NCBI GenBank assembly: GCA_903904005.1
Contig: CAIVAR010000011.1
Span: 1-64,000, forward strand
From: an uncultured Anaeromyxobacter sp.
Lineage (GTDB): Bacteria; Myxococcota; Myxococcia; Myxococcales; Anaeromyxobacteraceae
Length of the DNA: 64,000 nucleotides
Direction: 5' to 3'
Below are positions 32,121 through 46,637 of the stretch, one piece after another. The notes beneath the pieces are model-generated. The model searched no databases. It was given only the letters and a program-made list of their open reading frames with translations, and had not been told where the DNA came from. The translations under genes and the position numbers were made by a program. Position 1 is the stretch's first letter. Each line of letters opens with the position of its first letter.

Positions 32121-32774
32121 TCAGGTGTCGACGCGGATGACGCCCCGCCGCAGGGCAAAGCGCACCAGCTCGGTCCGGTTGTGGAGACCGAGCTTCTCCA
32201 TGACCTTCTCGCGGTGGGACATCGCGGTCTTCACGCTGATGCCGAGGACGTCGGCCACTTCCTTGTTGGCGAGCCCCTCGGCGACCAGCTTGAGTACCTG
32301 CTTCTCCCGGTCGGTGAGGGACTCGTAGGGATCGCCCCCCCCGGCCGCGGCCGGTCCGCCGTCCTCCATCGCGGTGCGCGCGACCTCCGGGTCGAGCACC
32401 AGCCCGCCGCGGTGAACGGCCCGGATGGCGTTCGGCAACTCGGCGCCCGCCGACTTCTTGAGCAGGTACCCGGAGACCCCCGCCTTGAGAAGGCGTCGGA
32501 CGTACTCCCGGTCCTCGTACTGGGAAAGGACGAGGATGCGCGCGCGCAGCCCCTCCTTCTTGATCTCGATGGTCGCCTCGAGCCCCCCCAGGCCCGGCAT
32601 GGCGATGTCCATGATCACCACGTCGGGGTCGAGCTTCCGGGTGGCCTCGATCGCTCCCTGGCCGTCGACGGCCTCCCCCACCACCTCGATGTCGTCGCAC
32701 AGCGCGAGCAGCGCCTTCACACCTTCCCGCAGGATGGCGTGGTCGTCGGCGAGCAGCACCCGGATCTTCGACAT
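32121..32774 (-). CDS. NarL/FixJ-family response regulator
   Basis: 217 residues: receiver domain (Asp55 in VIMDIAMPG) and LuxR-type HTH (LTDREKQVLKLVAEGLANKE...ISVKTAMSHREKVMEKLGL). Three bases separate it from the NarX-type kinase, its likely partner. It closes a row of closely spaced genes running from the respiratory cluster through the M56 peptidase. Confidence 0.92.
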   Translation of the reverse strand: MSKIRVLLADDHAILREGVKALLALCDDIEVVGEAVDGQGAIEATRKLDPDVVIMDIAMPGLGGLEATIEIKKEGLRARILVLSQYEDREYVRRLLKAGVSGYLLKKSAGAELPNAIRAVHRGGLVLDPEVARTAMEDGGPAAAGGGDPYESLTDREKQVLKLVAEGLANKEVADVLGISVKTAMSHREKVMEKLGLHNRTELVRFALRRGVIRVDT

Positions 32775-32777
32775 CGC

Positions 32778-34628
32778 CTACGCCTCCCTCGGGAGCGGGA
32801 CCGCCAGGCGGATGCGCGTCCCCTGCCCCGGCGCGGAATCGATCACGACCTTGCCTCCCAGGATCTCCACCCGTTCCTCGATTCCCATGAGCCCGAAGTG
32901 TCGCCGCTCGGCGTGCGACACGTTGTCGGGCTCGAAGCCGCGCCCATCATCCTCGATCTCGATGCGGATCTCACCCTCGCCCTCCGAGAGCTGGACGAGC
33001 ACGCTCTCGGCATGGGCGTGGCGCGCGATGTTGCTCATGGCCTCCTGGCAGACCCGGAAGAGCGCCGTCTCGAAGGCGGCCGGGAAACGCCGGTCGGGGG
33101 CGTCGAACTCGCACCGGACCGAGATGCCGCGCCCGGTCAGGTGCCGCTCGGCGTACCAGCGGATGGCCGACTGCAGCCCCAGGTCGTCGAGGACCGAAGG
33201 GCGCAGGTCCAGGATCATCCGGTGGACCTCCTCGATGGTCCGGACGGCGAGCGCCTTGGCCTCCTCGAGGCGCGGGGTGAGTCCGGCCTTGAGCGCCGCC
33301 AGGGAGCCATCGATGGCCATGACCAGGGCGGCCAGGCTCTGGCTGGTGTCGTCGTGCAGTTCGCGGGCGATGCGCTTGCGCTCGTCCTCCTGGGCCGACA
33401 CCACCTTCTCGTAGAGCCGCGCCAGCGCCAGCTCGCGGTCGCGAAGCTGCTCGTTCGCCTCGCCGAGCTGGGCGGTCCGCTCGACCACCCGCGCCTCCAG
33501 GCGCGTGTTGGCGTCGGCCACGATCCCGATGAGATCGGCCAGCGAGCGGCGCATCTTCTCGAGCGCCTCGGCGAGGCGCCCCACCTCGTCCTCCCCGAGC
33601 CGGGGGATCTGGCCCGAGAGGTCGCCGGCGGCGATGGTCTCCGCGGCCCGGGTGAGCGCCACCACCGGGAGGGCCACGCTTCGTGCCGCCCCCCAGGCCA
33701 GCAGGGCGCCGCAGGCGAGCGCCACGAAGATCATCCCCCCCAGCCAGGCCGGGAACGCGCCGGTGGCCCCCATCACCTCCGAGGCGGGCACGCGGGCCAT
33801 GATCACCCAGGGTGCGTTGGCGACCGCGGCGGTGGTCACCGCGGCGCGCCCCCGGACGTCCTGCGACCGCCCGGAGTGGCACTCGCTGCAGAGCCGGGAG
33901 TACCCCTTGCCCTCCGCGATGAGCCGGCGCACTCCGGAGCAGGCGGTGGTGGTGGCCGGCCGCCCAGGCTCCGTCGTGGCGAGGACGCGCCCCGCCTGGT
34001 CGACGATCTCCGCGGACCCGTCGGCGCTCTGCCGGAGGTAGCGGAGCATGACGAGGAGGTGGTGCTGCGAGGTGTCGATGACGCCTCCGGCGAGGCCGGT
34101 GACGCGCCCCTCCCAGTCCCGCACCGGTATCAGCTGGTAGACGTGCTCGCCGGACCGTCCCGCCACGAAGGGCGTGACCACGGGGCGCCCGGAGTCGATG
34201 GCGCCCCGCACCGCCGGCAGACCGGCGGCCGGGGCGATGGAACGCGACCCGCGGTCAGGCTCCTCGGCCACGACGTTGCCCGCGACGTCGAGGAAGAAGG
34301 CTCCGCCGGGAAACTGGAGCCTCACGCGGGGATCCCGCAGCGCCGCATGCTCCGCGGTGGCGTCGTGATCCTCGAGATTCACATGGGACGCCATGGCGGC
34401 GCGCTGCAGGACCTCGAACCCCTGGTTGAGCTCTTCCTCCACCTGCCCGGCCACCGTCCGCGCCGACCACTCCCGGGCGGCGACGAGCTGCTCGTCGAGG
34501 CGGGCCACGCGGACGCCGAAGGCCCAGGCGAGCATGGCGACCGGGATCACCGCGCTCACCGCGAGCAGCATGTAGACGCGGGTCTGCAGGGAACGCCGCA
34601 GGCGCTCCCGGATCGAGGGTGAGCTCAC
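32778..34628 (-). CDS. NarX-type sensor histidine kinase with haem-binding motif
   Basis: 616 residues from GTG 34628 (GTGA overlap with the gene before). TM1 about 18-38; a large periplasmic sensor (40-290) with CSECH at 247-251 and an extra Cys230; TM2 about 292-315; HAMP; a coiled coil; HisKA_3 with RKRIARELHDDTSQSLAAL; and ATPase with EAMSNIARHAHA, DDGRGF and HFGLMGIEERV. The CxxCH suggests covalent c-type haem in the sensor, as in the kinases at 27339 and 43970. Confidence 0.88.
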   Translation of the reverse strand: MSSPSIRERLRRSLQTRVYMLLAVSAVIPVAMLAWAFGVRVARLDEQLVAAREWSARTVAGQVEEELNQGFEVLQRAAMASHVNLEDHDATAEHAALRDPRVRLQFPGGAFFLDVAGNVVAEEPDRGSRSIAPAAGLPAVRGAIDSGRPVVTPFVAGRSGEHVYQLIPVRDWEGRVTGLAGGVIDTSQHHLLVMLRYLRQSADGSAEIVDQAGRVLATTEPGRPATTTACSGVRRLIAEGKGYSRLCSECHSGRSQDVRGRAAVTTAAVANAPWVIMARVPASEVMGATGAFPAWLGGMIFVALACGALLAWGAARSVALPVVALTRAAETIAAGDLSGQIPRLGEDEVGRLAEALEKMRRSLADLIGIVADANTRLEARVVERTAQLGEANEQLRDRELALARLYEKVVSAQEDERKRIARELHDDTSQSLAALVMAIDGSLAALKAGLTPRLEEAKALAVRTIEEVHRMILDLRPSVLDDLGLQSAIRWYAERHLTGRGISVRCEFDAPDRRFPAAFETALFRVCQEAMSNIARHAHAESVLVQLSEGEGEIRIEIEDDGRGFEPDNVSHAERRHFGLMGIEERVEILGGKVVIDSAPGQGTRIRLAVPLPREA

Positions 34629-35197
34629 CGGACCTCCCCGTGGATGCTTCGGGCCATGCGGATCAGGTCCTCGAGGGAGCCGCGCCCCCGCAGGAGGAAG
34701 TGGCGCCCGCTCCGTCTCCAGGCGAGCTGGTTCCACAGCGTCCCGTCCTCGGCAACCACGCGCGCCAGGACGGCGTCGTCGCCCAGGGGGGCGCTCTGCT
34801 GCTGGATCACCGCGAGCCGCCCCTGCAGCCCCTCGGGGATGGCCGCGTCCCCGCGGACGGTCTGGGCGAGGAAGAGCGCGGGCGCGCCGTCCTTCGCCAG
34901 GAAGTCGAGCGCGACCGAGCCGCCGTCGTCCCGGATGAACCGGACCGCCGAGGGCGGCCAGCGGAGGGTGTCCGGAAAGTAGGACGGGAGGAGGACCCGG
35001 GCCTGCACGCGCCGCTCGGCCTCCTCGATGGTCGCTGCGCGGCGGACGCCGCGGGGCTGGCCGTGCATCCAGGTGGGGATCGCGTCGAGCGTCGCGAGCG
35101 CCGCCGCGGCGCCCCCGAGCACGAGGGTCAAGGTCCAGAGGGCGCGGGCTCCCTCGCTCACCGTGCTTCCCATGGCCACGCCCCTCGCGGCCGTCAT
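34625..35197 (-). CDS. Membrane-anchored DUF4367-like protein
   Basis: 190 residues from ATG 35197, overlapping the M56 stop as ATGA (ATG 35173 is the alternative). One TM segment near residues 18-38 (LTLVLGGAAAALATL). The outer part has RVLLPSYFPDTLRWPPSAV and ends LLRGRGSLEDLIRMARSI, recalling DUF4367-type extracytoplasmic domains. It is coupled on both sides, to a BlaR1-like peptidase and to the haem-motif kinase, so it may modulate that sensor. Function unknown. Confidence 0.6.
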   Translation of the reverse strand: MTAARGVAMGSTVSEGARALWTLTLVLGGAAAALATLDAIPTWMHGQPRGVRRAATIEEAERRVQARVLLPSYFPDTLRWPPSAVRFIRDDGGSVALDFLAKDGAPALFLAQTVRGDAAIPEGLQGRLAVIQQQSAPLGDDAVLARVVAEDGTLWNQLAWRRSGRHFLLRGRGSLEDLIRMARSIHGEVR

Positions 35198-36186
35198 ACC
35201 ACGAAGAACAGCAGGAATCCGAGGCCGAGGGCGGCGGCGGCGAGGCGCATCCGCGCGAGGGGAACCGGCGCCGGCGCCGGGCCCATGAGGGCGCGGCAGC
35301 GCAGCTCGATGTCGTGGGCCCGGGCCCTTGCGATGGGCTCGGCGAGCGCCGCGGAGAGCGGGGTCGCCCCCGCCGTACGCGCAGGGGCCCGTCCCTCGGT
35401 GGCACGGAAGAGCTTGAGGAGCCCGCTCGCCAGGGCGAGCCGGTCCCGGCAGGCGTTGCCCGCCCGCTCGTCGGCGATGCGCTCGGCGTCCCGGGCGATG
35501 GCCCGGACCAGGACCTGTACCCCGGGGTTGAACCACATGAGGGCCCGCGCCCCCATGAGCGCCCAGGAGAGGGTCGGGTCGCGCTTCTCCAGATGTGCGA
35601 GCTCGTGAGCCAGCGCTCCGGCGAGCTCGGCGGGGTCGAGCAGCTCCACCGCCGCCCGGGAGATGACGACGGTGGGCTGCCGTGTCCCGGTGCAGAACAG
35701 CACGGGTGGCCCTTCGGCCACCCAGGCGAGCGGCGGCTTCTCGATGCCGAGCGCGGCGGCCGCCTGCCCGAGCGCTTCCTCGGCTGGCCGGGCCATGGGC
35801 GCGCCGGCGATCCACGCCGGCGACCGGGCATTGCGAGCGCGAAGCCAGGGGACGAGGTCGAGGAGGAAGAGCCCCAGGCCGGCGGCCACCATGAAGCCGA
35901 TCCACCAGCCGTAGAGGCCGACACCCAGGAAGGCGAGATCGTCCCAGTGGCGCCCGGCGAAGAGGGCGCGCGCGTCGCGGAAGGTCTCCGCCTCCCGGCC
36001 CGGGAAGGCGAGAAACAGGGCGGGGACGACGAGCAGCGGCCAGCCCAGGGCGAGCAGCCGGAACCCGGTCCGCTGCTCCGGCTGGCGCACCCGCCAGAGC
36101 CGGATCAAGGCCTCCACCACCAGGGCGGCGACCAGGGTGTGGAAGATCGCCTGGCCCGTGAAGTCGATCCACCTCGGGCCGGTCAT
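35194..36186 (-). CDS. M56-family (BlaR1-like) membrane metallopeptidase
   Basis: 330 residues with TM segments at about 15-35, 43-62, 85-112 and 305-330. The zinc motif HELAHLEKRDP (His194, His198) is cytoplasmic in M56 proteins, and ERIADERAG supplies the third ligand. Such peptidases cleave regulators after a signal. Only 24 bases separate it from the cytochrome b gene, so it may be read with the respiratory cluster. No BlaI-like repressor is present nearby. Confidence 0.82.
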   Translation of the reverse strand: MTGPRWIDFTGQAIFHTLVAALVVEALIRLWRVRQPEQRTGFRLLALGWPLLVVPALFLAFPGREAETFRDARALFAGRHWDDLAFLGVGLYGWWIGFMVAAGLGLFLLDLVPWLRARNARSPAWIAGAPMARPAEEALGQAAAALGIEKPPLAWVAEGPPVLFCTGTRQPTVVISRAAVELLDPAELAGALAHELAHLEKRDPTLSWALMGARALMWFNPGVQVLVRAIARDAERIADERAGNACRDRLALASGLLKLFRATEGRAPARTAGATPLSAALAEPIARARAHDIELRCRALMGPAPAPVPLARMRLAAAALGLGFLLFFVV

Positions 36187-36210: not shown

Positions 36211-36981
36211 CTAATGCCCGTGCCCGTGATCGCCTGGCTCGCGCCCCTCGAGGCGCGCCAGCTCGAGCGGGTGCTCGTGCGCCATCCGCTCCCGGCTGAT
36301 GCTCCCCGTGAAGATGGAGGCGTCGAAGGGGAAGACGTCGGGGTGGAGGTGGGCGTTGAAGATGTGCCAGATGGTGATGACGAGGAACGCCATGAGCCCC
36401 TCGTTCGAGTGGGCCACCTTGGCCGCCGGGATGATCTCGCCAGGACCGAAGCGGGCCACCACCGCCGGGTACATGAGCGTGAGGCCGGAGAGGATCATGA
36501 TCACGTTGCCGATCATGAGGCTCCAGTACTCCCACTTCTGCTTGTAGTCGTAGCGATCGAAGGCGGCGGGGTGGTCCTCGAGCCCCAGGTAGTAGCGCAG
36601 CGTCGTCACCGCGTCGGTGAAGTCCCGCTTGTTCACCGCCATGCTGAAGCCGACCTTGCGCGACAGGATGGCCCGCATCGCGCCCACCGCGTGCCAGAGC
36701 ACGGCGACGATGAGCAGGATCCCGAAGAAGCGGTGGATCCAGCGGACGCCGTCGATCCCGCCCAGGTTTCCGATGAGCCACTGGGCCCACCGGGCGGTGT
36801 AGAACTTCTGCGGAAGGCCGGTCAGGACCAGGCCGACGAAGTCGACCATGGTCACGAAGTGCTCGACCCGCTGGGCCGGCGAGAAGCGGAGCAGGAACCC
36901 CGCCTCGGAATTCACCGCCTCGTCGCTCATCGTGCCGCTCCTCGCTCCGGTCCCGGAGGCGCCCGCCGTGTCGCCGCTCAT
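36211..36981 (-). CDS. Membrane cytochrome b (formate-dehydrogenase gamma/b561 type)
   Basis: 256 residues from ATG 36981 (ATGA overlap). Four TM segments at about 45-65, 80-105, 150-175 and 190-215. Candidate haem ligands are His in VEHF, WIHRFFGILLIVAVLWH, VAHSNEG and TIWHIFNAH. The tail is His-rich (DHGHGH). It is likely a di-haem quinone-reactive subunit that passes electrons to the nine-haem cytochrome encoded just upstream. Confidence 0.87.
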   Translation of the reverse strand: MSGDTAGASGTGARSGTMSDEAVNSEAGFLLRFSPAQRVEHFVTMVDFVGLVLTGLPQKFYTARWAQWLIGNLGGIDGVRWIHRFFGILLIVAVLWHAVGAMRAILSRKVGFSMAVNKRDFTDAVTTLRYYLGLEDHPAAFDRYDYKQKWEYWSLMIGNVIMILSGLTLMYPAVVARFGPGEIIPAAKVAHSNEGLMAFLVITIWHIFNAHLHPDVFPFDASIFTGSISRERMAHEHPLELARLEGREPGDHGHGH

Positions 36982-38021
36982 CGGTTCACCACCACCCGCC
37001 ACAGGTGCAGCGCGATCTGGATGACCAGGCTGAGCAGGATGAAGGGGATGAGCACGTAATAGAAGATCTGGACGCTCCAGACGAGCGGCGACTTCTTCAG
37101 GCTCGGCTCGTAATGGGACATCCAGGCCTTGGGGAAGTCGGCGGTGGCGCCGGCGTGGCACTTGCCGCAGGTCTTCACCAGATTTGCCTGCATCACCGAC
37201 GACTTGGGGTCGTCGGGGCGCTGGATGTCGTGCACGCCGTGGCAGTCGGTGCAGCCGGCCGCCAGCCGGTCGCCCTTCCCCTTCTTGCCCTTCTGCAGGG
37301 AGGCCGCCATGCCGTGGAAGTCGGCCAGGTAGCTCGCGACCACGTTGGTGGAGAGGCCGTACCGCTTCATCAGCTTCGGATCGGTGTGGCAGCGGCCGCA
37401 GATCTCGGCGGTGCGCAGCGACAGCGCCCCGGCGCGGGGATCGGCCACGTCGTGGGCCCGGTGGCAGTCGGTGCAGACCGGCACGTCGGGGTTTCCCTGG
37501 GTGACGGCCTTGCCGTGGACGCTGCTCTTGTAGACGTCGAAGACCTTCTTGTGGCAGTTCGAGCAGGTCTCGGAGACGCGGGTGCGTGGCTCGGCCGGGC
37601 GCCCGATGGCGTGGGAGCCGTGGCAATCGACGCAGAGCGCGGCCTGCCGGTTGCCCTTCTCGGCGACCTGGAAGTGCACGCCGTCGAGGGTCTTGGTGTA
37701 GTTCGAGAAGTGGCACTTCTTGCACTGCTCGTAGTAGGCGACGGTGACGTCCCGGCGGTTCTTGAAGGGCTTCGACTCGTGGGGGTAGTCGGCCTTGTCG
37801 GTGTGGCAATCCGTGCAGCGGAGGATGTCCCCGTGGACCGACTTCCCGAAGGCGGCCTGGTCGACGTGGAGCGGGAGCTTCTCGCCGCTCGGCAGGTCCA
37901 TGGTCATCGAGGGGTCGCTGCCGTGGCAGCCCAGGCAGCTGTCCTGCTCGGCCGGGATCTCGGCGCGCACGGGGGCGGCGAGGAGCACCACCGCGAGCAC
38001 CAGAATGAACCTCATCGGCAT
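36978..38021 (-). CDS. Nine-haem membrane-anchored cytochrome c
   Basis: 347 residues from ATG 38021 with AGGAG 5 bases upstream. Signal peptide (FILVLAVVLLAAPVRA), then nine CxxCH motifs (first CLGCH at 29-33, last CGKCH), many extra His for distal ligation, and a C-terminal TM helix (VQIFYYVLIPFILLSLVIQI). It should face the periplasm and exchange electrons with the coupled cytochrome b. Its gene lies 256 bases after the three-haem cytochrome and may have its own promoter. Confidence 0.92.
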   Translation of the reverse strand: MPMRFILVLAVVLLAAPVRAEIPAEQDSCLGCHGSDPSMTMDLPSGEKLPLHVDQAAFGKSVHGDILRCTDCHTDKADYPHESKPFKNRRDVTVAYYEQCKKCHFSNYTKTLDGVHFQVAEKGNRQAALCVDCHGSHAIGRPAEPRTRVSETCSNCHKKVFDVYKSSVHGKAVTQGNPDVPVCTDCHRAHDVADPRAGALSLRTAEICGRCHTDPKLMKRYGLSTNVVASYLADFHGMAASLQKGKKGKGDRLAAGCTDCHGVHDIQRPDDPKSSVMQANLVKTCGKCHAGATADFPKAWMSHYEPSLKKSPLVWSVQIFYYVLIPFILLSLVIQIALHLWRVVVNR

Positions 38022-38215
38022 GTGCACTCCTCGTGTCTGTCGGGGGACCCCGGAAGTTGACTGGCGGTCCTCGATCCGACCCCGTCGCGTGTAGCAGATC
38101 CACACAGGTCGCGCCAGCGGAACGATGAACGAGTGCCATGTATTTCCCCGGTAAATTCACATTTCTTCATCGACCTGTGCGGGTGAGTTGGGCCACCTCG
38201 CCCAGGACGCATGAT

Positions 38216-38252
38216 GCGCGCGCCCGAGGTCCCTTTCGGGCCGGGCGCGCGC
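38216..38252. promoter_or_regulatory. Strong stem-loop between the two cytochrome c genes
   Basis: GCGCGCGCCCG (38216-38226) and CGGGCGCGCGC (38242-38252) are perfect 11-bp arms around 15 bases. No T-run follows on the minus strand. It could be a terminator, an mRNA processing site or a 3'-end barrier that sets different levels for the two halves of the cluster. Confidence 0.45.
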
Positions 38253-38277
38253 AAGGATTTCGCCGGTCAGCGACCGT

Positions 38278-38622
38278 CTAGCGGTGGCACGTGTCGCAGG
38301 AGTCGAACCCGAAGGCGCCCTTGCCGTGACAGGCGCCGCACTGGCCACCCTTCTCCATCACCGCGTGGCGGATGGGGGCGCCGTTGGCCGTCGCGCCCTT
38401 CTCCAGCATCTGGAAGAGCTTCGGGTGGCAGGTGGTGCAGCCCGGCTTCTTCACGTCCACGTGGCTCTGGTGGCTGAAGGTCACCTTGCCCGGGCTTCCG
38501 TCCCCCGGCGGATAGGTGAAGTCGGGCGGGAGCTTGTCGAGCCCTCCGGCGAGCGCCGTGGTGGCGAGCGCGGCGGCGGCGACGACGGCGAGGCGGCGGA
38601 GGGTCTTTCCGATCGGATTCAT
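38278..38622 (-). CDS. Three-haem cytochrome c7-like protein
   Basis: 114 residues: signal peptide (VVAAAALATTALAGG), then CTTCH (62-66), CGACH (95-99) and CDTCH (109-113), with His51, His54 and His86 available as distal ligands. This fits the cytochrome c7 class of small periplasmic electron carriers. Its ATG overlaps the stop of the lipoyl-fold gene (ATGA). A likely shuttle between the quinol-facing subunits and periplasmic acceptors. Confidence 0.9.
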   Translation of the reverse strand: MNPIGKTLRRLAVVAAAALATTALAGGLDKLPPDFTYPPGDGSPGKVTFSHQSHVDVKKPGCTTCHPKLFQMLEKGATANGAPIRHAVMEKGGQCGACHGKGAFGFDSCDTCHR

Positions 38623-39317
38623 GGCGTCCCCTGGGTTTCCTTGGTGCGGAAGAACTCGCGGGCGACGTCGTCCCAGTGCTCCGGGTCGATCTCCCGCGCG
38701 ATGCCGTGGACCGGCGCGCCGCCGTCCTGGAGGACCGGTGCGGGCTCCGGGGAGAGGCGCGCCGCCAGCCTTCGCCCCTGGTCCTCGAGCCAGTCGCGCG
38801 CCGCCGCGCCGTCGAGCAGCTGGGCCCGGCTTCGCTTCCAGCCATCCGGCCGGACCCGGAAGAGCCAGCCGCTCCCGTACGGGTCGAGGTGGGCGTCCGG
38901 CGCGGCGTTGTAGGCGATCACCTCGCCGTCGACCGGGGAGACCACCTTCACGCTTCGTCCACCGGCGGAGAGCGTCACCGCGGGAGCGCCCTGCTCGACC
39001 CGGTCCCCGCGCCCCGGGACGTCGATCCGGTCGAGGTCGCCGACCAGTCGGTGGCCCAGGTCGTCGAGCCCGACCGAGACCGACCCGTCGTCCTCCAGGC
39101 GCGCCCAGCTGTGACCCGGATGCAGGGCCACGCCGTCGGGCACCGTGAACCAGCCGGTGTGCACCGGCTCGGCCCCGACCCGCGCGGCCGCGCCGGCGGT
39201 GGCCCGGCCCCCCTGGAGGTACCGCCAGAAGCCCACGAAGAGCAGCAGGTAGGCGACGGCGAGACCGTACTCGACCAGCTTCGCGGAGTAGCCGACCAGG
39301 AACTCGTTCCCGTGCAT
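38619..39317 (-). CDS. Membrane-anchored GcvH/lipoyl-fold protein lacking the lipoyl lysine
   Basis: 232 residues. TM helix about 16-35, then a domain like glycine cleavage H protein (GLDDLGHRLVGDLDRIDVPG, SPVDGEVIAYN, YGSGWLFRV). In gapless alignment with lipoyl domains the modified Lys falls on Gly120 (TLSAGGRSVKVVSP); the nearest Lys is 124 in the next strand. So lipoylation seems unlikely and a structural role is inferred. It is fixed between NrfD and the c7 cytochrome, with a 4-base overlap to the latter. Confidence 0.75.
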   Translation of the reverse strand: MHGNEFLVGYSAKLVEYGLAVAYLLLFVGFWRYLQGGRATAGAAARVGAEPVHTGWFTVPDGVALHPGHSWARLEDDGSVSVGLDDLGHRLVGDLDRIDVPGRGDRVEQGAPAVTLSAGGRSVKVVSPVDGEVIAYNAAPDAHLDPYGSGWLFRVRPDGWKRSRAQLLDGAAARDWLEDQGRRLAARLSPEPAPVLQDGGAPVHGIAREIDPEHWDDVAREFFRTKETQGTP

Positions 39318-39327
39318 GGCGCCCTCC

Positions 39328-40551
39328 TCAGTGCTCGCCGGCGTTGGACTTCATGGGGCGCAGCACCGGCATCCGGTTGACGATCCAGCGGAACGCCAGG
39401 ACGCCGATGACCACCAGGGCGAGCGAGACGGAGACCTCCATCCAGCTCGGCCAGTAGCGGACGGACTGGTGGTAGTTGTAGGCGACGAGCGAGACGTTGA
39501 GCCGGTTGAGGACGATTCCGCTCACGCCCAGGATGGCGGCCACCCGCACCACCGTCACGTGCCGGTTCCGGGCGCCCCAGGCGAACATGAGCGAGGGGAG
39601 GAGCACGAAGCCCAGCATCTCCACCAGGAACCACTTGCCGTAGAAGCCCATCCCGATGAGGCCGAGGGCGTGGTTGTCGATGACCCCCTGCAGCTTGAGG
39701 AAGAAGTAGGCGAACATCACCACCGCGCCGGCCTTGGCGAGCCCGAGCGTGAGCTTGTCGACGTCGACGTGGTGCCCCTCGAACTGCTCGGAGAAGAGCC
39801 GGTGCGAGAGCGTGCTCTCCACGATGACCATGCAGATGCCGGCGATGACCGCGCTGATGAAGAAGAACAGGAAGATCTGGCTGGAGTACCAGAGCGGGTG
39901 GAGCTTGCCCGGGGCGATGATGAAGAGGGAGCCCAGCGCCGACTGGTGCATGGTCGAGAACATCACCGAGAGCACGGTGAGGCCGAGCAGCGCCTTCTTG
40001 AGCGGGCGGTAGAAGCGCTCCCAGCCCAGCCACTCGAAGAACGGGACCGCGAACTCGAGCAGGAGGACGGTGGTGTAGCAGCAGACGCACCAGGCGACCT
40101 CGAAGAGGACCGACTGGGTGCCGTTGTTGGAGAAGATGCCGATCATGTTCCAGGGCTTGCCCAGGTCGGCGATGAGCCCGATGACCGCCATCATGTAGCC
40201 GAGGAAGCCGGTGAGGATCGCCGGGCGCTCGATGGAGTGGTACTCGTCGAGGCCGAAGATCTCCACGGTCGCGCCGATGGTGAACCCGCCCGCGGCCAGC
40301 GCGATGCCGGTCATCATGTCGAAGCCGATCCACAGCCCCCAGGGCTGGGTCTGCGACAGGTTGGTGGTGGCGCCCAGGCCGGCGACGAACCGGTAGACGA
40401 GAACCGGGATGCCGACGGCGAGGATGGCCGTGCAGACCACGTTGAAGGGCGTCCAGAGGGACCGGAGGTACTGCGGGAAGGTCATGCCGAGGAAGATGCG
40501 CTCCTGCACCCAGGAGCCCGGGCGGGCCGGTGCGGTGACGACGCTAGCCAT
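39328..40551 (-). CDS. NrfD/HybB-family quinol-reactive membrane subunit
   Basis: 407 residues from ATG 40551 (GGAGG 5 bases upstream). About ten TM helices; conserved polar stretches include QTQPWGLWIGFDM, STMHQSALGSLF and HPLWYSSQ. It is closest to HybB, the cofactor-free quinone-binding partner of a HybA-like Fe-S protein. Its start lies 8 bases inside the upstream Fe-S gene. With that protein it would link the quinone pool to the c-type haems of the cluster. Confidence 0.9.
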   Translation of the reverse strand: MASVVTAPARPGSWVQERIFLGMTFPQYLRSLWTPFNVVCTAILAVGIPVLVYRFVAGLGATTNLSQTQPWGLWIGFDMMTGIALAAGGFTIGATVEIFGLDEYHSIERPAILTGFLGYMMAVIGLIADLGKPWNMIGIFSNNGTQSVLFEVAWCVCCYTTVLLLEFAVPFFEWLGWERFYRPLKKALLGLTVLSVMFSTMHQSALGSLFIIAPGKLHPLWYSSQIFLFFFISAVIAGICMVIVESTLSHRLFSEQFEGHHVDVDKLTLGLAKAGAVVMFAYFFLKLQGVIDNHALGLIGMGFYGKWFLVEMLGFVLLPSLMFAWGARNRHVTVVRVAAILGVSGIVLNRLNVSLVAYNYHQSVRYWPSWMEVSVSLALVVIGVLAFRWIVNRMPVLRPMKSNAGEH

Positions 40552-41461
40552 GGTTGCCTCCGTCGGCCTTGCCGGCCCCGTGATCCGTTCCGTGCGGCTT
40601 GTTCTTTCCATCGCGGTGCGAGAAGGCCCAGAGCCCCATCAGGAGCGGCGGCCAGAGCGTCATGACCACCGGCGGCACGCCCAGCGCCCCCCGGACCAGC
40701 TTCGGGTAGGAGTTGTCGTTGACCGCGACCTCGAAGCCCAGCTTCTCGAAGGAGAGGTCGCTCACGTACATCCAGTTGGTCCCGCCGGCCTCGTGCTCGC
40801 CGTAGATGTGGGGCAGGTACTTGTCGGGGTTGCCGTAGACGCGGCGCCGCGCCTCCTCGACGAGCTGGCCGCGCGTCCCGTAGGCGAGCGCGCCGCTCGG
40901 GCAGACGCCCACGCAGGCGGGCTGCTTCCCCTCGGCCTGGCGACCCGAACAGAAGGTGCACTTGCGGACCACCGGGATGGCCTTCGAGTACTCGTACTTG
41001 GGGACCGAGAACGGGCAGGCCACCATGCAGTACCGGCAGCCCATGCACTTCGAGCCGTCGTAGGCCACCGGTCCGGTGGCCAGCTTGTCGAGCGCCCGCA
41101 CCGGGCAGGCCGACGCGCAGGCCGGCTCCACGCAGTGCATGCACTGGCGCTTGACGTACCGGGTGCTGCCGTCCGCCTTCGGGGTCGGGTTCACCACCGT
41201 GAAGCACTCCGGCCCGGTGGTCCGGGTCGCCGCGTAGGCCTTGTCGTCGCCGGGCGGGTCGGGGAGCTTGTTGGCCTCGGCGCAGGCGGCCTCGCAGCCG
41301 CGGCAGCCGATGCACTTCGTGGTGTCGACGAGGACGGAGCTCTCGTCCGCGCCCACGGCGTGGACGTCGCTGGCCGCCCGGGAACGTCCCGGGAGCGCGA
41401 CGAGCGCCGCGGTTCCGGTGGCGCCGGCGATCTGGAGGAAGGTTCTTCTGCCGAGCTTCAT
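40544..41461 (-). CDS. HybA-like four-cluster Fe-S protein, Tat-exported
   Basis: 305 residues. Tat signal RRTFLQIAGATG at 5-16; four Cys sets (CIGCRGCEAAC; CMHC with CASACP; CMGCRYCMVACPF; CTFC with CVGVCP) for four 4Fe-4S clusters; and a C-terminal TM helix (VVMTLWPPLLMGLWAF) followed by a His/Gly/Lys tail. This is the HybA arrangement: a periplasmic electron wire anchored to the membrane beside NrfD/HybB. No catalytic molybdenum or nickel subunit is encoded nearby. Confidence 0.93.
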   Translation of the reverse strand: MKLGRRTFLQIAGATGTAALVALPGRSRAASDVHAVGADESSVLVDTTKCIGCRGCEAACAEANKLPDPPGDDKAYAATRTTGPECFTVVNPTPKADGSTRYVKRQCMHCVEPACASACPVRALDKLATGPVAYDGSKCMGCRYCMVACPFSVPKYEYSKAIPVVRKCTFCSGRQAEGKQPACVGVCPSGALAYGTRGQLVEEARRRVYGNPDKYLPHIYGEHEAGGTNWMYVSDLSFEKLGFEVAVNDNSYPKLVRGALGVPPVVMTLWPPLLMGLWAFSHRDGKNKPHGTDHGAGKADGGNHG

Positions 41462-41486
41462 GGTGGGCTCTCCGGTCTTCGCGGGG

Positions 41487-41555
41487 TCAGGGGATGCGGT
41501 TCAGGAATCCAATCACGACGAGTCCGACGACGGCGAGGGCAGTGACGGCGATCAC
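41487..41555 (-). CDS. 22-aa single-helix membrane peptide
   Basis: GTG 41555 to TGA 41487: MIAVTALAVVGLVVIGFLNR plus IP. The GTG overlaps the stop of the Cys protein as GTGA, and AAGGGGG lies 7 bases before it. It is nearly all membrane helix with a basic end, like the tiny subunits CydX, KdpF or CcoQ. Position directly before the Fe-S/NrfD pair suggests a small subunit of the same complex. Too short for homology judgement; chance is possible. Confidence 0.5.
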   Translation of the reverse strand: MIAVTALAVVGLVVIGFLNRIP

Positions 41556-41776
41556 GACTGCACCCCCTTCTTCCCGTGGACTTCCTTGAGCTCGGTCTCG
41601 AGCTCCTCGATGGTGTGGAGGGCCCTGGAAAGGGCTTCCCGGTAGAGGGCGCAGCCGTTGAACCCGTCCCCCTCGCAGGCAGAGGCGGTGCTGATCCGAT
41701 CGGTCGGGATGAGCTTCTTCTGCGGGGAGGCCCCGCAGAACACCATGGTCACTTCGGTGAGGTAGGGACAGGTCAT
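41552..41776 (-). CDS. Small Cys-containing protein, first gene of the respiratory cluster
   Basis: 74 residues from ATG 41776 (GGAGG 11 bases upstream). A GTG at 41794 is the alternative, but the predicted sigma-54 transcript starts near 41795, leaving it no leader. Four Cys: MTCPYLTE, VFCGAS, ASACEG and GFNGCALYRE; a charged helix ends it. The spacing could hold a Zn or Fe-S centre. It is cytoplasmic as no signal is seen. No named family is recognised. It is coupled to the 22-aa peptide. Confidence 0.65.
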   Translation of the reverse strand: MTCPYLTEVTMVFCGASPQKKLIPTDRISTASACEGDGFNGCALYREALSRALHTIEELETELKEVHGKKGVQS

Positions 41777-41805: not shown

Positions 41806-41821
41806 TTCAAGGGGTGAGCCA
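41806..41821 (-). promoter_or_regulatory. Sigma-54-type promoter for the respiratory cluster
   Basis: On the minus strand TGGCTC (41821-41816), ACCCC, TTGAA (41810-41806). It matches TGGCAC-N5-TTGCW at 9 of 11 defined positions; the C of the invariant -12 GC is A here. The start point would be near 41795. Confidence 0.55.
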
Positions 41822-42052: not shown

Positions 42053-43434
<1,382 letters not shown>

Positions 43435-43438
<4 letters not shown>

Positions 43439-43968
43439 CTCGCCTCTCCCCCGCGCCGCATCACGCGGTCGCGGCACTTCGAGCAGAATTCCCCGCGCTT
43501 CCGATCCACGTCCCGTGCGTTGGGCGATCTCCCCATGACGCACGCCGGGCTGTCGCAATGGACGAGCCCGAAGCAGTGTCCCAGTTCGTGGACGCTCTCC
43601 TTGGCCAGCCGCTCCAGCGCCACCCGTGGGTCGGGAAGCCCGGGCTCCCCCAGACGGGCGGTGGAGACCACCGCGGAGCGCCCGTCGAGCTGGGCCTCGC
43701 CGAAGACGAAGGTGAGGATGGGGATGAAGAGATCCTGGTCGGTCACGGCGAGGACCTTCCCCGGCGGCCCCGTCGTTCCCAGCCAGGCCAGGATCCGCGA
43801 GGTGGCCCACTGCTTGCGCCGGGGGTCGTAGGCGTCGGGCGGCCGGGCCGGATCGTTCCAGATGCCGACGGAGGTCTGGAGCGCCCGCCCCAGGTGGAGC
43901 CGCACGTGATCGAGGGTCCGGGGACCTGGATCCTTCTCGCCGATCCACCACAGGTGTATCGCCTCCAC
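43435..43968 (-). CDS. amzA: Archaemetzincin-type zinc peptidase
   Basis: 177 residues from GTG 43968. The full signature is present: HELGHCFGLVHC (127-138), C143-x-M145 and CSKC (162-165), i.e. HExxHxxGxxHCx4CxM...CxxC, which binds a catalytic and a structural zinc. There is no signal peptide, so it is cytoplasmic. Archaemetzincins are aminopeptidase-like enzymes with poorly known roles. It starts one base after the kinase stop and its stop overlaps the regulator start, so it belongs to this two-component operon. Confidence 0.88.
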
Positions 43969-43969
43969 G

Positions 43970-45655
43970 TCACGACCCGCGCGCCGCGGGGAGCCGGATG
44001 GTGAAGCGGGTCCCCTTCCCCGGATCGCTGTCCACGCTCACGTGCCCCTTGTGCCGATCGACGATCCCGTAGACCACCGAGAGCCCGAGGCCGGTGCCCT
44101 TCTCCTTGGTGGTGAAGAACGGGTCGAAGATCTTCACCATGAGCTCGGGCGGGATCCCCGGCCCGTCGTCCTGGAAGACGATCTCGACGGCGCCCTCGCC
44201 GGGCAGCGGGCGGGTGGTCACCTGGAGGATCCCCCCCTTGCCCATGGCCTCGATGGCGTTGATGACGATGTTGATGAAGGCCTGGCGGAGCTGACCGAAG
44301 TCGGCCTGGACCGGGGGAACGGGGGCGAGGTCCTTGCGGATCTCCACGCCCAGGATGGCGACCTGGTTCGTGACCAGCGAGAAGACCTCGTCGACGACGT
44401 GGTTCACGTCGACGTCCTTGAGTTGCATCGGCCGTTCCCGGGCGAAGTCGAGGAGGTTCCGCACGATGGCTGTGCAGCGCTCCGTCTCGCGCTGGACGAG
44501 CGCCAGCTGCTTCACCAGCGTCCGGCGCTCTGCCTCCCCGACCGGGCCGTGCTCGATGGTCCGGATCATGAGCTTCGCGAAGGTGAGGATGCCGGCCAGC
44601 GGGTTGTTGATCTCGTGCGCGATGGAGGCCGAGAGCTTTCCCAGCGAGGAGAGCTTCTCGGTCCGGACGAGCGTGTCCTGGGCGGCCCGCAGCTCGCCGG
44701 TGCGCTCCTCGACCTTCAGCTCGAGCTGCTCGTTGAGGGCCTGGAGCTCCCCCTCCACGCGGCGCAGCGAGCGGATCATGTCGTTGAAGGAGGCGGCGAG
44801 CAGGCCCAGCTCGCCCCGGGAGTCGACGTGGAGCTCGGTGTCGAGCTCGTCGTGCGCCACCCGGCGGGTGGCCTGGACGAGCGCCTCCACGGGGCGGACC
44901 ACCCGGTTCTTGGCCACCCACCAGAAGATCCCGCAGAGCAGCAGGGCGAGGAGCGCCGTGACGAGGAGGCTGACGCGCCGGAAGGCCGACAGGTCCCGGT
45001 CGAGGGGGGCGAGCGAGACGCCCAGGTCGAGGACCCCGACCACCGCCTTCTCCCGCGGGTGCGCGTGGCAGGCGCTCGTGGTGCAGTCCGGGCTGGACCG
45101 GATGGGCGTGACCATGGAGAGGACCCGCCCCTGGCGCCCGTCGTAGACCCGGGCCCGCAGCGCGTCGATGGGGACGGTGAGGCTCTCGTTGTCGCCGTGG
45201 CAGGAGTTGCACCCCTCGGCCCGCTTGTCGACGAGCTGGCCGCGCTCGCCGGGCACCGTCGAGAAGGTGATGCGCCCTTCCTTGTTGAAGATCCGGACGT
45301 GGGCGATCTGCGCCTGGCGGCCGACGTTGTCGATGATGGCGTAGGCGTCGCCCCGCTCGTCCTTCAACATGGCGTGGCGGATCGAGGCCGAGACGGTCTC
45401 GCTCACCAGGGACGTGGCCGCGGTCGCGCTGGCGAGCCGCTGGCGGGCGATGGTCATCTCCACCACGGCGAAGGCCACCACCGCGGCGAGGACGAGCGCC
45501 GCCGCGACGCCGAGCAGCTGGGTGGAGATGCGGTCGCGCCAGGGGATGGAATCGAGCGCGGCGTGGTCGTGCCGGGGGCGTGTGGGCGTGCCCGGGGGCA
45601 CCGCCTCCGGACCGTTGCCGCCCTCTTCTGTCCCGCTCGACGACCCTTCCCGCAC
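43970..45655 (-). CDS. Sensor histidine kinase with two haem-type motifs
   Basis: 561 residues from GTG. TM1 about 44-66; periplasmic sensor 70-225 with CNSCH (149-153) and the spaced motif CTTSACH (191-197, CX4CH); TM2 about 228-250; HAMP; HisKA with ASIAHEINNPLAGIL; ATPase with NIVINAIEAMG, DDGPGIP and GTGLGLSVVYGIV. CX4CH haem sites are known in tetrahaem cytochromes c3, so this sensor may carry two haems. It heads the operon with amzA and the NtrC-type regulator. Confidence 0.9.
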   Translation of the reverse strand: MREGSSSGTEEGGNGPEAVPPGTPTRPRHDHAALDSIPWRDRISTQLLGVAAALVLAAVVAFAVVEMTIARQRLASATAATSLVSETVSASIRHAMLKDERGDAYAIIDNVGRQAQIAHVRIFNKEGRITFSTVPGERGQLVDKRAEGCNSCHGDNESLTVPIDALRARVYDGRQGRVLSMVTPIRSSPDCTTSACHAHPREKAVVGVLDLGVSLAPLDRDLSAFRRVSLLVTALLALLLCGIFWWVAKNRVVRPVEALVQATRRVAHDELDTELHVDSRGELGLLAASFNDMIRSLRRVEGELQALNEQLELKVEERTGELRAAQDTLVRTEKLSSLGKLSASIAHEINNPLAGILTFAKLMIRTIEHGPVGEAERRTLVKQLALVQRETERCTAIVRNLLDFARERPMQLKDVDVNHVVDEVFSLVTNQVAILGVEIRKDLAPVPPVQADFGQLRQAFINIVINAIEAMGKGGILQVTTRPLPGEGAVEIVFQDDGPGIPPELMVKIFDPFFTTKEKGTGLGLSVVYGIVDRHKGHVSVDSDPGKGTRFTIRLPAARGS

Positions 45656-45785: not shown

Positions 45786-46637
45786 ATGCACGCCGTCCTC
45801 CTCATCCGCTGCGCCGACCGCCCCGGGATCGTGGCCGCGGTCTCCACCTTCCTCTTCCGGCACGGCGCCAACGTCGTCGACCTCGACCAGCACTCCACCG
45901 AGGAGCTGCCGGGCACCTACTTCATGCGGCTCGAGTTCCAGACCGAGGGGCTCGACCTCCCGCTCGAGCGGCTCGGCGAGGCCTTCGCCGCGGAGGTGGG
46001 CACCCCGATGGGCATGGAGTGGCGGCTCGCGAGCCACGCGGAGCGGCGGCGGGTGGCGGTCCTCGTCTCCCGGCACGACCACGCGCTCCTCGAGCTCCTC
46101 TGGAACTGGAAGCGCGGGGACCTGCGCGTCGACATCCCGCTCGTGATCTCGAACCACCCCGACCTCGGACCGTCGGTGGAGTCGTTCGGCGTTCCCTTCC
46201 TGCACGTGCCCAACTCGAGCGCGTCCCGCGAGGGGGCCGAGGCTCGGATGGTCTCGGCGCTGGAGGGCCAGGCCGACCTCGTGGTCCTCGCGCGCTACAT
46301 GCAGGTGCTCTCCCCGGGCTTCGTCGACCGCTTCGCCGGGCGGGTCATCAACATCCACCACTCCTTCCTCCCCGCCTTCGCCGGCGCCGATCCCTACCGG
46401 CAGGCCTACGACCGGGGCGTGAAGATCGTCGGGGCCACCGCCCATTACGTCACCGCGGTGCTCGACGCCGGCCCCATCATCGATCAGGACGTGGCGCGGG
46501 TGAGCCACCGCGACTCGGTCGAGGACCTGCGGGCGCTCGGGCGCGATCTGGAGCGGCGCGTCCTGGCCCGCGCGGTGCGCTGGCACTGCGAGGACCGCGT
46601 GCTCGTCCACGGCAACAAGACCATCGTCTTCTCCTGA
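45786..46637 (+). CDS. purU: Formyltetrahydrofolate deformylase
   Basis: 283 residues: N-terminal ACT domain (IRCADRPGIVAAVSTFLF) and a formyltransferase-like domain with VLARYMQVLSP, NIHHSFLPAFAGA (active-site His) and Asp in PIIDQDVARV. It hydrolyses 10-formyl-THF to formate and THF, balancing one-carbon pools. It is divergent from the haem-motif kinase operon; hemF follows after 12 bases. Confidence 0.94.
   Translation: MHAVLLIRCADRPGIVAAVSTFLFRHGANVVDLDQHSTEELPGTYFMRLEFQTEGLDLPLERLGEAFAAEVGTPMGMEWRLASHAERRRVAVLVSRHDHALLELLWNWKRGDLRVDIPLVISNHPDLGPSVESFGVPFLHVPNSSASREGAEARMVSALEGQADLVVLARYMQVLSPGFVDRFAGRVINIHHSFLPAFAGADPYRQAYDRGVKIVGATAHYVTAVLDAGPIIDQDVARVSHRDSVEDLRALGRDLERRVLARAVRWHCEDRVLVHGNKTIVFS

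What the first reader, a model, noticed from the sequence alone, without database searches (positions are those of the whole stretch)
36211..41776. Unusual quinol-to-cytochrome gene cluster without a catalytic subunit
Eight genes, mostly overlapping or closely spaced, encode: Cys protein, 22-aa TM peptide, HybA-like Fe-S protein, NrfD/HybB, lipoyl-fold protein, c7 cytochrome, nine-haem cytochrome and cytochrome b. HybA-NrfD-cytochrome sets are known (Hmc, Qrc and Geobacter Cbc complexes), but I do not recognise this exact set. It holds two quinone-reactive modules (NrfD and cytochrome b) and no terminal reductase. Inferred role: a membrane electron-transfer complex feeding periplasmic acceptors, perhaps for metal reduction.
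Basis: partly seen in the sequence, partly recalled or inferred. Interest (0 to 1): 0.75.

Follow-up and report, generated by a model that had tools for sequence, protein, structure and literature searches.

The report
Haem-kinase-coupled HybA-NrfD module with pseudo-H-proteins
This gene cluster encodes a membrane electron-transfer complex that across many bacterial phyla travels with its own haem-bearing sensor kinase, a gene switch, a zinc protease and lipoic-acid-free look-alikes of a glycine-breakdown protein, suggesting a respiratory complex wired directly into bacterial signalling.

Summary
In detail: eight minus-strand genes, 36211-41776, with the stated identities. They are one part of a larger unit conserved through the family (about 15 genes) and, in reduced form, across many phyla. 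The recurrent core is not the cytochromes. It is HybA + NrfD + usually two GcvH-like proteins, next to a dihaem histidine kinase, a sigma-54 response regulator and an archaemetzincin. About half of the modules have no cytochrome of their own.

The 'lipoyl-fold protein' has the H-protein fold but lacks the lipoyl lysine in nearly all relatives. In other lineages the same domain is fused to response-regulator receiver domains, once in an operon with HybA, NrfD and the dihaem kinase. A sigma-54 promoter-like site precedes the operon in most loci. The kinase's haem motifs occur where HybA/NrfD occur and are missing where they are absent.

Best reading: an Hmc/HybAB-type quinol:cytochrome electron-transfer complex under dihaem-kinase/sigma-54 control, with cytosolic pseudo-H-protein subunits tied to the phosphorelay. 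In Anaeromyxobacteraceae a CbcL-like nine-haem/cytochrome-b pair is added. Electron transfer, its direction and the pseudo-H-protein role are inferred. Metal reduction is untested. I found no published description. It is a new variant of a known kind.

The parts
43970..45655 (-). Sensor histidine kinase with periplasmic dihaem sCache-like domain (CNSCH ... CTTSACH), HAMP, HisKA, HATPase
   Evidence: Pfam; both haem motifs; AF2 model of 44987-45547 matches WalK/CitA sCache domains and haem sensor GSU0935
43435..43968 (-). Archaemetzincin zinc metalloprotease (Peptidase_M54)
   Evidence: NF033823 150 bits, cut-off 145; PF07998 77 bits; active-site motif kept in 64 of 66 relatives
42053..43438 (-). 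Sigma-54-dependent NtrC-type response regulator (REC + AAA + Fis HTH)
   Evidence: Pfam; NCBIfam
41806..41821 (-). Sigma-54 -24/-12-like site TGGCTCACCCCTTGAA, about 30 bp before CYS start
   Evidence: shuffling p=0.03 here; 42 of 68 modules p<0.05 versus 5 of 68 on the reverse strand
41552..41776 (-). Small four-Cys protein (MTCPYL..FC..SxC....FxxC), function unknown
   Evidence: conserved family, no Pfam/NCBIfam match
41487..41555 (-). 22-aa single-TM peptide MIAVTALAVVGLVVIGFLNRIP
   Evidence: equivalent 22-33 aa TM peptides before HybA in Anaeromyxobacter, Acidobacteria, Rokubacteria
40544..41461 (-). HybA/HmcB-like periplasmic Fe-S protein (Tat signal, C-tail TM)
39328..40551 (-). NrfD/HybB/HmcC-like quinone-reactive membrane subunit
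   Evidence: HybB residues R89, Y99, E148, H184 conserved
38619..39317 (-). GCVH1: one TM helix + lysine-less H-protein (GcvH) domain + conserved C-terminal tail
   Evidence: PF01597 53.7 bits; AF2 pLDDT 85, best PDB match lipoylated E. coli H-protein E=1e-11; Lys column
38278..38622 (-). Triheme cytochrome c7
   Evidence: PF14522, TIGR04257 above cut-off
36978..38021 (-). Nine-CxxCH periplasmic cytochrome with C-terminal TM
36211..36981 (-). Cytochrome b561/FdnI-like membrane subunit (alternative start 36930 fits orthologues)
   Evidence: PF01292 43 bits; orthologue starts
35194..36186 (-). Membrane metallopeptidase of the M56/HtpX type, conserved neighbour in the family
34625..35197 (-). Conserved uncharacterised membrane protein
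32778..34571 (-). Second sensor kinase, one CxxCH, dCache-like sensor
32121..32774 (-). NarL-type response regulator partner of the second kinase

Best explanation
The cluster encodes a HybA/NrfD (Hmc/Hyd-2 type) membrane complex that exchanges electrons between menaquinol (NrfD, membrane) and periplasmic cytochromes through HybA Fe-S clusters and c7. Its production is set by its own dihaem sensor kinase and sigma-54 response regulator: the kinase reads the redox state (or NO) of the periplasm by covalent haem, and the regulator fires a sigma-54 promoter before the operon. The GcvH-like subunits are H-protein folds that have lost the lipoyl lysine. They sit on the cytosolic side and act as docking or regulatory domains that tie the complex to the phosphorelay, not as lipoate carriers. 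In Anaeromyxobacteraceae a CbcL-like nine-haem cytochrome plus cytochrome b is added as a second quinol-to-periplasm branch. Shown by sequence: gene content, synteny, lysine loss, haem motifs, sigma-54-like sites, receiver-GcvH fusions. Inferred: electron transfer and its direction, cytosolic side, physical coupling, autoregulation.
For: Conserved core across phyla. Independent sampling through the sensor domain: 10 of 20 fetched Desulfobacterota loci are full modules. Of 42 modules with 5 kb either side, 37 have a dihaem kinase, 39 RR54, 34 archaemetzincin, 35 two or more GcvH-like genes. Kinase haem motifs present in 47 of 50 loci with HybA/NrfD and absent in 7 of 8 without. Sigma-54-like site 42 of 68 vs 5 of 68 on the control strand. 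GcvH: fold, Lys lost (K in 3 of 168), positive charges after the TM. Fusions with receiver domains: L245, L265, L266 and, beside HybA-NrfD and the dihaem kinase, L263, where TM-REC-GcvH keeps the GCVH1 tail. NrfD functional residues conserved. The same kinase/RR54 type flanks a Cbc5-like quinol:cytochrome cluster.
Against: No biochemistry. About half the modules have no nearby cytochrome c (19 of 42), so the periplasmic partner is not fixed and the complex could be mainly a sensor. In the window's own genus three relatives have the cluster without any GcvH gene (pair elsewhere in two of them), so tight coupling is not reflected in gene order there. The TM-REC-GcvH fusion was found in one genome of 345. 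The window's sigma-54 site has TTGA, not TTGC, at -12, and several Desulfobacterota modules show no site.
Confidence: 0.55

Rival explanations
1. The HybA-NrfD-GcvH core is primarily a signalling device: NrfD/HybA oxidise quinol and pass electrons to the kinase's dihaem domain, so the kinase reads the quinone pool. The cytochromes are regulated cargo, not partners.
For: Kinase haems co-occur with HybA/NrfD. 19 of 42 modules have no own cytochrome. Signalling genes are the most constant neighbours. GcvH-receiver fusions. GcvH + archaemetzincin + kinase + RR54 also occur without HybA/NrfD, with cytosolic PAS kinases.
Against: c7 or other multihaem genes lie near NrfD on the same strand in 23 of 42 modules. 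Ion-pathway residues of HybB are conserved, as expected of an energy-conserving enzyme. The kinases without these haems may be one lineage, so the correlation may be a single domain swap.
Confidence: 0.22
2. A plain respiratory quinol:cytochrome c oxidoreductase. The GcvH-like proteins are structural subunits and the regulators are ordinary neighbours, as with Geobacter Cbc5.
For: HmcB/HmcC-like scores; NrfD residues; a dihaem kinase + RR54 next to a Cbc5-like cluster shows that such regulators flank respiratory complexes.
Against: Does not explain the constant archaemetzincin, the GcvH genes that persist without HybA/NrfD beside kinase and RR54, or receiver-GcvH fusions.
Confidence: 0.2
3. 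Electrons run inward: the complex reduces quinone with electrons from periplasmic cytochromes (as Qrc does), for H2, formate or extracellular electron uptake. This concerns direction only and overlaps with the other readings.
For: NrfD complexes are known in both directions (PMC8076601). The genome encodes two Hyd-2-type hydrogenases.
Against: No dedicated donor gene in the cluster; the hydrogenases carry their own HybA/HybB.
Confidence: 0.15
4. Lipoamide carrier: the GcvH-like protein bears lipoate and brings dithiol electrons from the cytosol to the membrane complex.
For: True H-protein fold; LbpA-type lipoate proteins do serve a redox pathway (PMC6067878, found).
Against: The lipoyl lysine is not kept in 165 of 168 sequences, gaps included; mostly G, D, A or S.
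Confidence: 0.02

Closest known systems
Hmc complex (HmcABCDEF) of Desulfovibrio
   Same: HmcB- and HmcC-like subunits are the best NCBIfam matches; a small TM peptide is present
   Different: Both score below the curated cut-offs; no 16-haem HmcA, HmcE or HmcF; adds c7, nine-haem + cytochrome b, GcvH-like proteins, archaemetzincin and dihaem kinase
Hyd-2 HybA-HybB quinone module of E. coli
   Same: HybA (Tat, C-tail anchor) + HybB architecture; R89, Y99, E148, H184 conserved
   Different: No hydrogenase; below the HybA and HybB cut-offs; NrfD separates from HybB and from the genome's own Hyd-2 HybBs in the tree
CbcL of Geobacter (nine-haem c + FdnI-like b)
   Same: Nine CxxCH and an FdnI-like cytochrome b, adjacent genes
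   Different: Two separate genes here; direct sequence comparison with CbcL not made; the description of CbcL is my own knowledge (PMC9129911 was seen only in a search listing)
Cbc5 (CbcEDCBA) with dihaem kinase GSU0599 and sigma-54 regulator
   Same: Same kinase type (Adeh_2011/Adeh_3383 and GSU0591/GSU0599 were noted as sensors with two haem motifs, PMC3831638) and RR54 beside a quinol:cytochrome complex
   Different: Cbc5 has no HybA/NrfD, GcvH-like protein or archaemetzincin
HybA + HybB-like + octahaem cytochrome modules (Tat C-tail survey, PMC10924467)
   Same: C-tail HybA next to a HybB-like quinol oxidase and cytochrome c
   Different: Those authors saw no conserved flanking genes; here the flanking phosphorelay is conserved across phyla
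H-protein GcvH / LbpA
   Same: Fold
   Different: Lipoyl lysine lost, TM anchor or receiver fusion, unrelated gene context

Membership tests
Hmc complex | HmcB and HmcC above NCBIfam curated cut-offs | tested here: not met
   330 < 420 and 441 < 550 bits
Hmc complex | 16-haem HmcA and HdrD-like HmcF in the cluster | tested here: not met
   No such genes between 32121 and 45655
Qrc complex | QrcB molybdoprotein-like subunit; QrcC and QrcD above cut-off | tested here: not met
   No QrcB; QrcC 69 < 400, QrcD 92 < 570 bits
HybAB of group-1c [NiFe] hydrogenase | Hydrogenase large and small subunits in the operon | tested here: not met
   Absent here; hydrogenase-type genes accompany the genome's other HybA/HybB pairs
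NrfD/HybB quinone-reactive subunit | NrfD profile and functional residues R89, Y99, E148, H184 of HybB | tested here: met
   PF03916 57.5 > 25.8 bits; all four residues kept
Nhc (NhcABCD) | Nine-haem NhcA-type cytochrome with HybA/NrfD subunits | tested here: inconclusive
   Nine CxxCH present but the gene pairs with cytochrome b; NhcA was not available for comparison
CbcL | Single polypeptide of nine-haem c domain and cytochrome b | tested here: not met
   Two adjacent genes
Cbc5 (CbcEDCBA) | 7-haem CbcA, CbcB, 12-haem CbcC, dihaem CbcD | tested here: not met
   Different gene set; a Cbc5-like cluster seen in L246, L247
Lipoyl H-protein (GcvH) | Lipoyl lysine | tested here: not met
   G at that column in the window; K in 3 of 168 relatives
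Lipoyl H-protein (GcvH) | H-protein fold | tested here: met
   PF01597 above cut-off; 3ab9 E=1.1e-11, TMt 0.86
Archaemetzincin | NF033823 cut-off and HExxHxxGxx(H/D/N)Cx4CxM | tested here: met
   150 >= 145; motif present
c-type haem Cache/PAS sensor kinases (Londer/Pokkuluri type) | CxxCH in a periplasmic PAS/Cache fold, here with a second Cx4CH | tested here: met
Sigma-54-controlled operon | Promoter used in vivo by sigma-54 | not testable with these tools
   Conserved -24/-12-like site only

The most novel reading that the evidence does not exclude
Lysine-less H-protein domains are a new class of phosphorelay adaptor or output domain, and the HybA-NrfD-GcvH core is a membrane enzyme whose quinol oxidation is gated by, or read out through, a dihaem kinase: a respiratory complex and a two-component system working as one machine, found across at least eight phyla.
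Probability: 0.33. Interest if true: 0.82.

Novelty: new variant of a known kind. Interest (0 to 1): 0.62.

Why it matters
It defines a conserved, unnamed module in Anaeromyxobacter isolates and in Acidobacteriota, Rokubacteria, Desulfobacterota, Gemmatimonadota, Ignavibacteria and other MAGs. The module joins quinone chemistry, haem sensing, sigma-54 control and a zinc protease. It gives non-lipoylated GcvH-like proteins, easily mistaken for glycine cleavage proteins, a testable role in signal transduction. It gives bacterial archaemetzincin a reproducible context. It offers a direct test of whether a NrfD complex can feed a sensor kinase.

Tried and rejected
Lipoate-carrier idea: rejected by lysine loss.

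Homology of the four-Cys protein to the Cys-rich N-terminus fused to GcvH elsewhere: profile comparison gave nothing, although the two never co-occur (31 vs 15 loci, 0 both).

Sigma-54 site before the nine-haem gene: none found. A strong hairpin follows c7 but has no T-run, and no sigma-70-like promoter was found.

PDB sequence search with NrfD: no match. MtrB/PioB porin search of the own genome: no hit, but the control also failed, so it says nothing.

Literature: searches for NrfD+HybA+GcvH, GcvH+receiver, archaemetzincin+kinase found no description. PMC10553843 does not mention Nhc, Ohc, Hmc, HybA or NrfD in its held text.

A first self-training gene finder mis-called several GC-rich loci and was replaced by six-frame profile searches.
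Full report
Observation. The four-Cys protein starts at the conserved ATG 41776. The 22-aa peptide (41487-41555) starts within its stop codon. HybA-NrfD overlap by 8 bp, GcvH-c7 by 4 bp and the nine-haem/cytochrome b genes by up to 4 bp, so this reads as an operon with one 250-bp break (38028-38277). Profile searches give HmcB/HybA, HmcC/HybB (NrfD), GCV_H, Cytochrome_C7, a nine-CxxCH cytochrome and a b561/FdnI-type cytochrome b. The peptide and four-Cys protein have no library match but are conserved in relatives, so they are genes rather than chance ORFs.

The unit is larger. Upstream are a dihaem histidine kinase, an archaemetzincin and a sigma-54 response regulator. Downstream are an M56/HtpX-like membrane peptidase, a small membrane protein, a second CxxCH-bearing kinase and a NarL-type regulator. 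In the window's family (relatives named Anaeromyxobacter where names are given) the order kinase - archaemetzincin - RR54 - CYS - HybA - NrfD - GcvH1 - c7 - GcvH2 - nine-haem - cytochrome b - M56 - small protein - kinase 2 - NarL recurs in L044, L047, L049, L051 and L054 (CYS is not called in all of them). The window lacks GcvH2 in the gap. Its genus-mates G002 and G003 lack both GcvH genes in the cluster and carry the pair elsewhere; G001 (incomplete) also lacks them in the cluster. G000 itself has a further pair on contig C146.

Core across phyla. A genome-collection scan with GcvH1 gave 78 named loci. Six-frame profile annotation shows HybA-NrfD with GcvH-like genes and kinase/RR54/archaemetzincin in Acidobacteriota, Rokubacteria, a Nitrospinota MAG, Syntrophales, Syntrophobacteraceae, Desulfarculales, Gemmatimonadota, Ignavibacteria/Bacteroidota and a Phycisphaerales MAG (beside a 17-haem cytochrome). 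Many are MAG contigs, so individual assignments may be wrong. Because that scan was ascertained through GcvH, I sampled independently through the kinase sensor domain: 109 of 345 Desulfobacterota genomes have it, and 10 of the 20 loci fetched, mostly from its best hits, are full HybA-NrfD-GcvH modules. Of 42 distinct modules with 5 kb on both sides of NrfD, 37 have a dihaem kinase, 39 RR54, 34 archaemetzincin, 35 at least two GcvH-like genes, but only 23 a cytochrome c within 4 kb on the same strand. The nine-haem/cytochrome-b pair is confined to the family, apart from one other locus, L091.

GcvH-like proteins. The AlphaFold2 model (pLDDT 85) is a TM helix followed by an H-protein fold; the best PDB match is lipoylated E. 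coli H-protein. The lipoyl lysine column has K in 3 of 168 sequences, so lipoate carriage is very unlikely. Positive charges follow the TM helix, suggesting a cytosolic domain. In other genomes the domain is fused to receiver domains: L245 (REC 111 bits, GCV_H 91 bits), L265, L266 and L263. L263 is an operon HybA - NrfD - 12/13-haem cytochrome - dihaem kinase - REC-GcvH - TM-REC-GcvH; the last keeps the C-terminal tail typical of GcvH1 and an intact phospho-acceptor region. That fusion is rare (one of 345 genomes), but it supports a cytosolic location and links the domain to a phosphorelay. Some Desulfobacterota have GcvH (with a Cys-rich N-terminus) + archaemetzincin + RR54 + a soluble PAS kinase with no HybA/NrfD.

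Regulation. The periplasmic sensor has CxxCH and Cx4CH; its model matches sCache domains (WalK, CitA) and the haem sensor GSU0935. Both motifs are kept in 47 of 50 kinases beside HybA/NrfD and missing in 7 of 8 without; at least part of the exceptions are truncated contigs or a second kinase nearby. The no-NrfD kinases are one type with a different N-terminus, so this may reflect few evolutionary events. A -24/-12-like site precedes the first gene of the HybA operon in 42 of 68 loci (p<0.05 by shuffling) against 5 of 68 on the reverse strand. In the window it is 41806-41821, with TTGA at -12. No such site precedes the nine-haem gene; a strong hairpin lies after c7, so the nine-haem/cytochrome-b part may be a separate transcript.

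Quinone module. All four HybB residues reported to affect turnover (R89, Y99, E148, H184; cited in PMC8076601) are conserved in the window NrfD and nearly all relatives. NrfD separates from HybB and from the genome's own Hyd-2 HybBs in the tree.

Known context. Sensors with two haem motifs were noted in A. dehalogenans (Adeh_2011, Adeh_3383) and G. sulfurreducens (GSU0591, GSU0599) (PMC3831638). In Geobacter, Cbc5 is CbcEDCBA (PMC11434368, PMC7894505), and I see a Cbc5-like cluster with a dihaem kinase and RR54 in L246/L247. That GSU0591 is CbcD and that GSU0599 neighbours the sigma-54 regulator of cbcBA is my own knowledge. Related single-haem Cache sensors fused to signalling modules have properties of NO sensors (PMC12889525), so NO is an alternative signal. 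A Tat C-tail survey described HybA/HybB-like/cytochrome modules without conserved flanks (PMC10924467). No paper found joins NrfD, GcvH and archaemetzincin; most subscription papers are not in the library.

Conclusion. Most likely an Hmc/HybAB-like quinol:cytochrome complex, expressed under dihaem-kinase/sigma-54 control, with pseudo-H-proteins connecting it to the phosphorelay (0.55). It could instead be mainly a quinone-redox sensor (0.22). The electron acceptor, direction and metal-reduction role are open.

Noticed in passing
G000:C146 (L039:398-1802), G002:C170, G003:C94/C14, G004:C1: GcvH1+GcvH2 pairs also occur away from HybA/NrfD in the family, with unrelated neighbours; some genomes (e.g. 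A. oryzae) have several orphan copies.
   Followed up: partly
L245, L263, L265, L266: Receiver-domain-GcvH fusion proteins, an architecture I could not find described.
   Followed up: partly
L122, L103, L137, L140, L141, L144, L124, L127: A second Cys motif (CVW..AG[LV]..xxLC....C..CP[LF]D) fused to GcvH-like proteins; it never co-occurs with the separate four-Cys protein.
   Followed up: partly
window 35194-36186 and 43435-43968: Two unrelated metalloproteases (M56/HtpX-like and archaemetzincin) flank the cluster across the family; substrate unknown.
   Followed up: no
window 38180-38280: Strong GC-rich hairpin after c7 without a T-run, in the gap where relatives keep GcvH2.
   Followed up: partly
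L138 (Phycisphaerales MAG): The module lies next to a 17-CxxCH cytochrome, recalling HmcA.
   Followed up: no
L114: Two tandem dihaem kinases beside one module.
   Followed up: no
L063, L064, L059 (G000); G000:C86: The genome has two Hyd-2-type [NiFe] hydrogenase loci, an alternative-complex-III-like/cytochrome oxidase cluster and NrfA.
   Followed up: partly
window 45786-46637: A formyltetrahydrofolate deformylase-like (PurU) gene lies divergently next to the kinase in most family loci; reason unknown.
   Followed up: no
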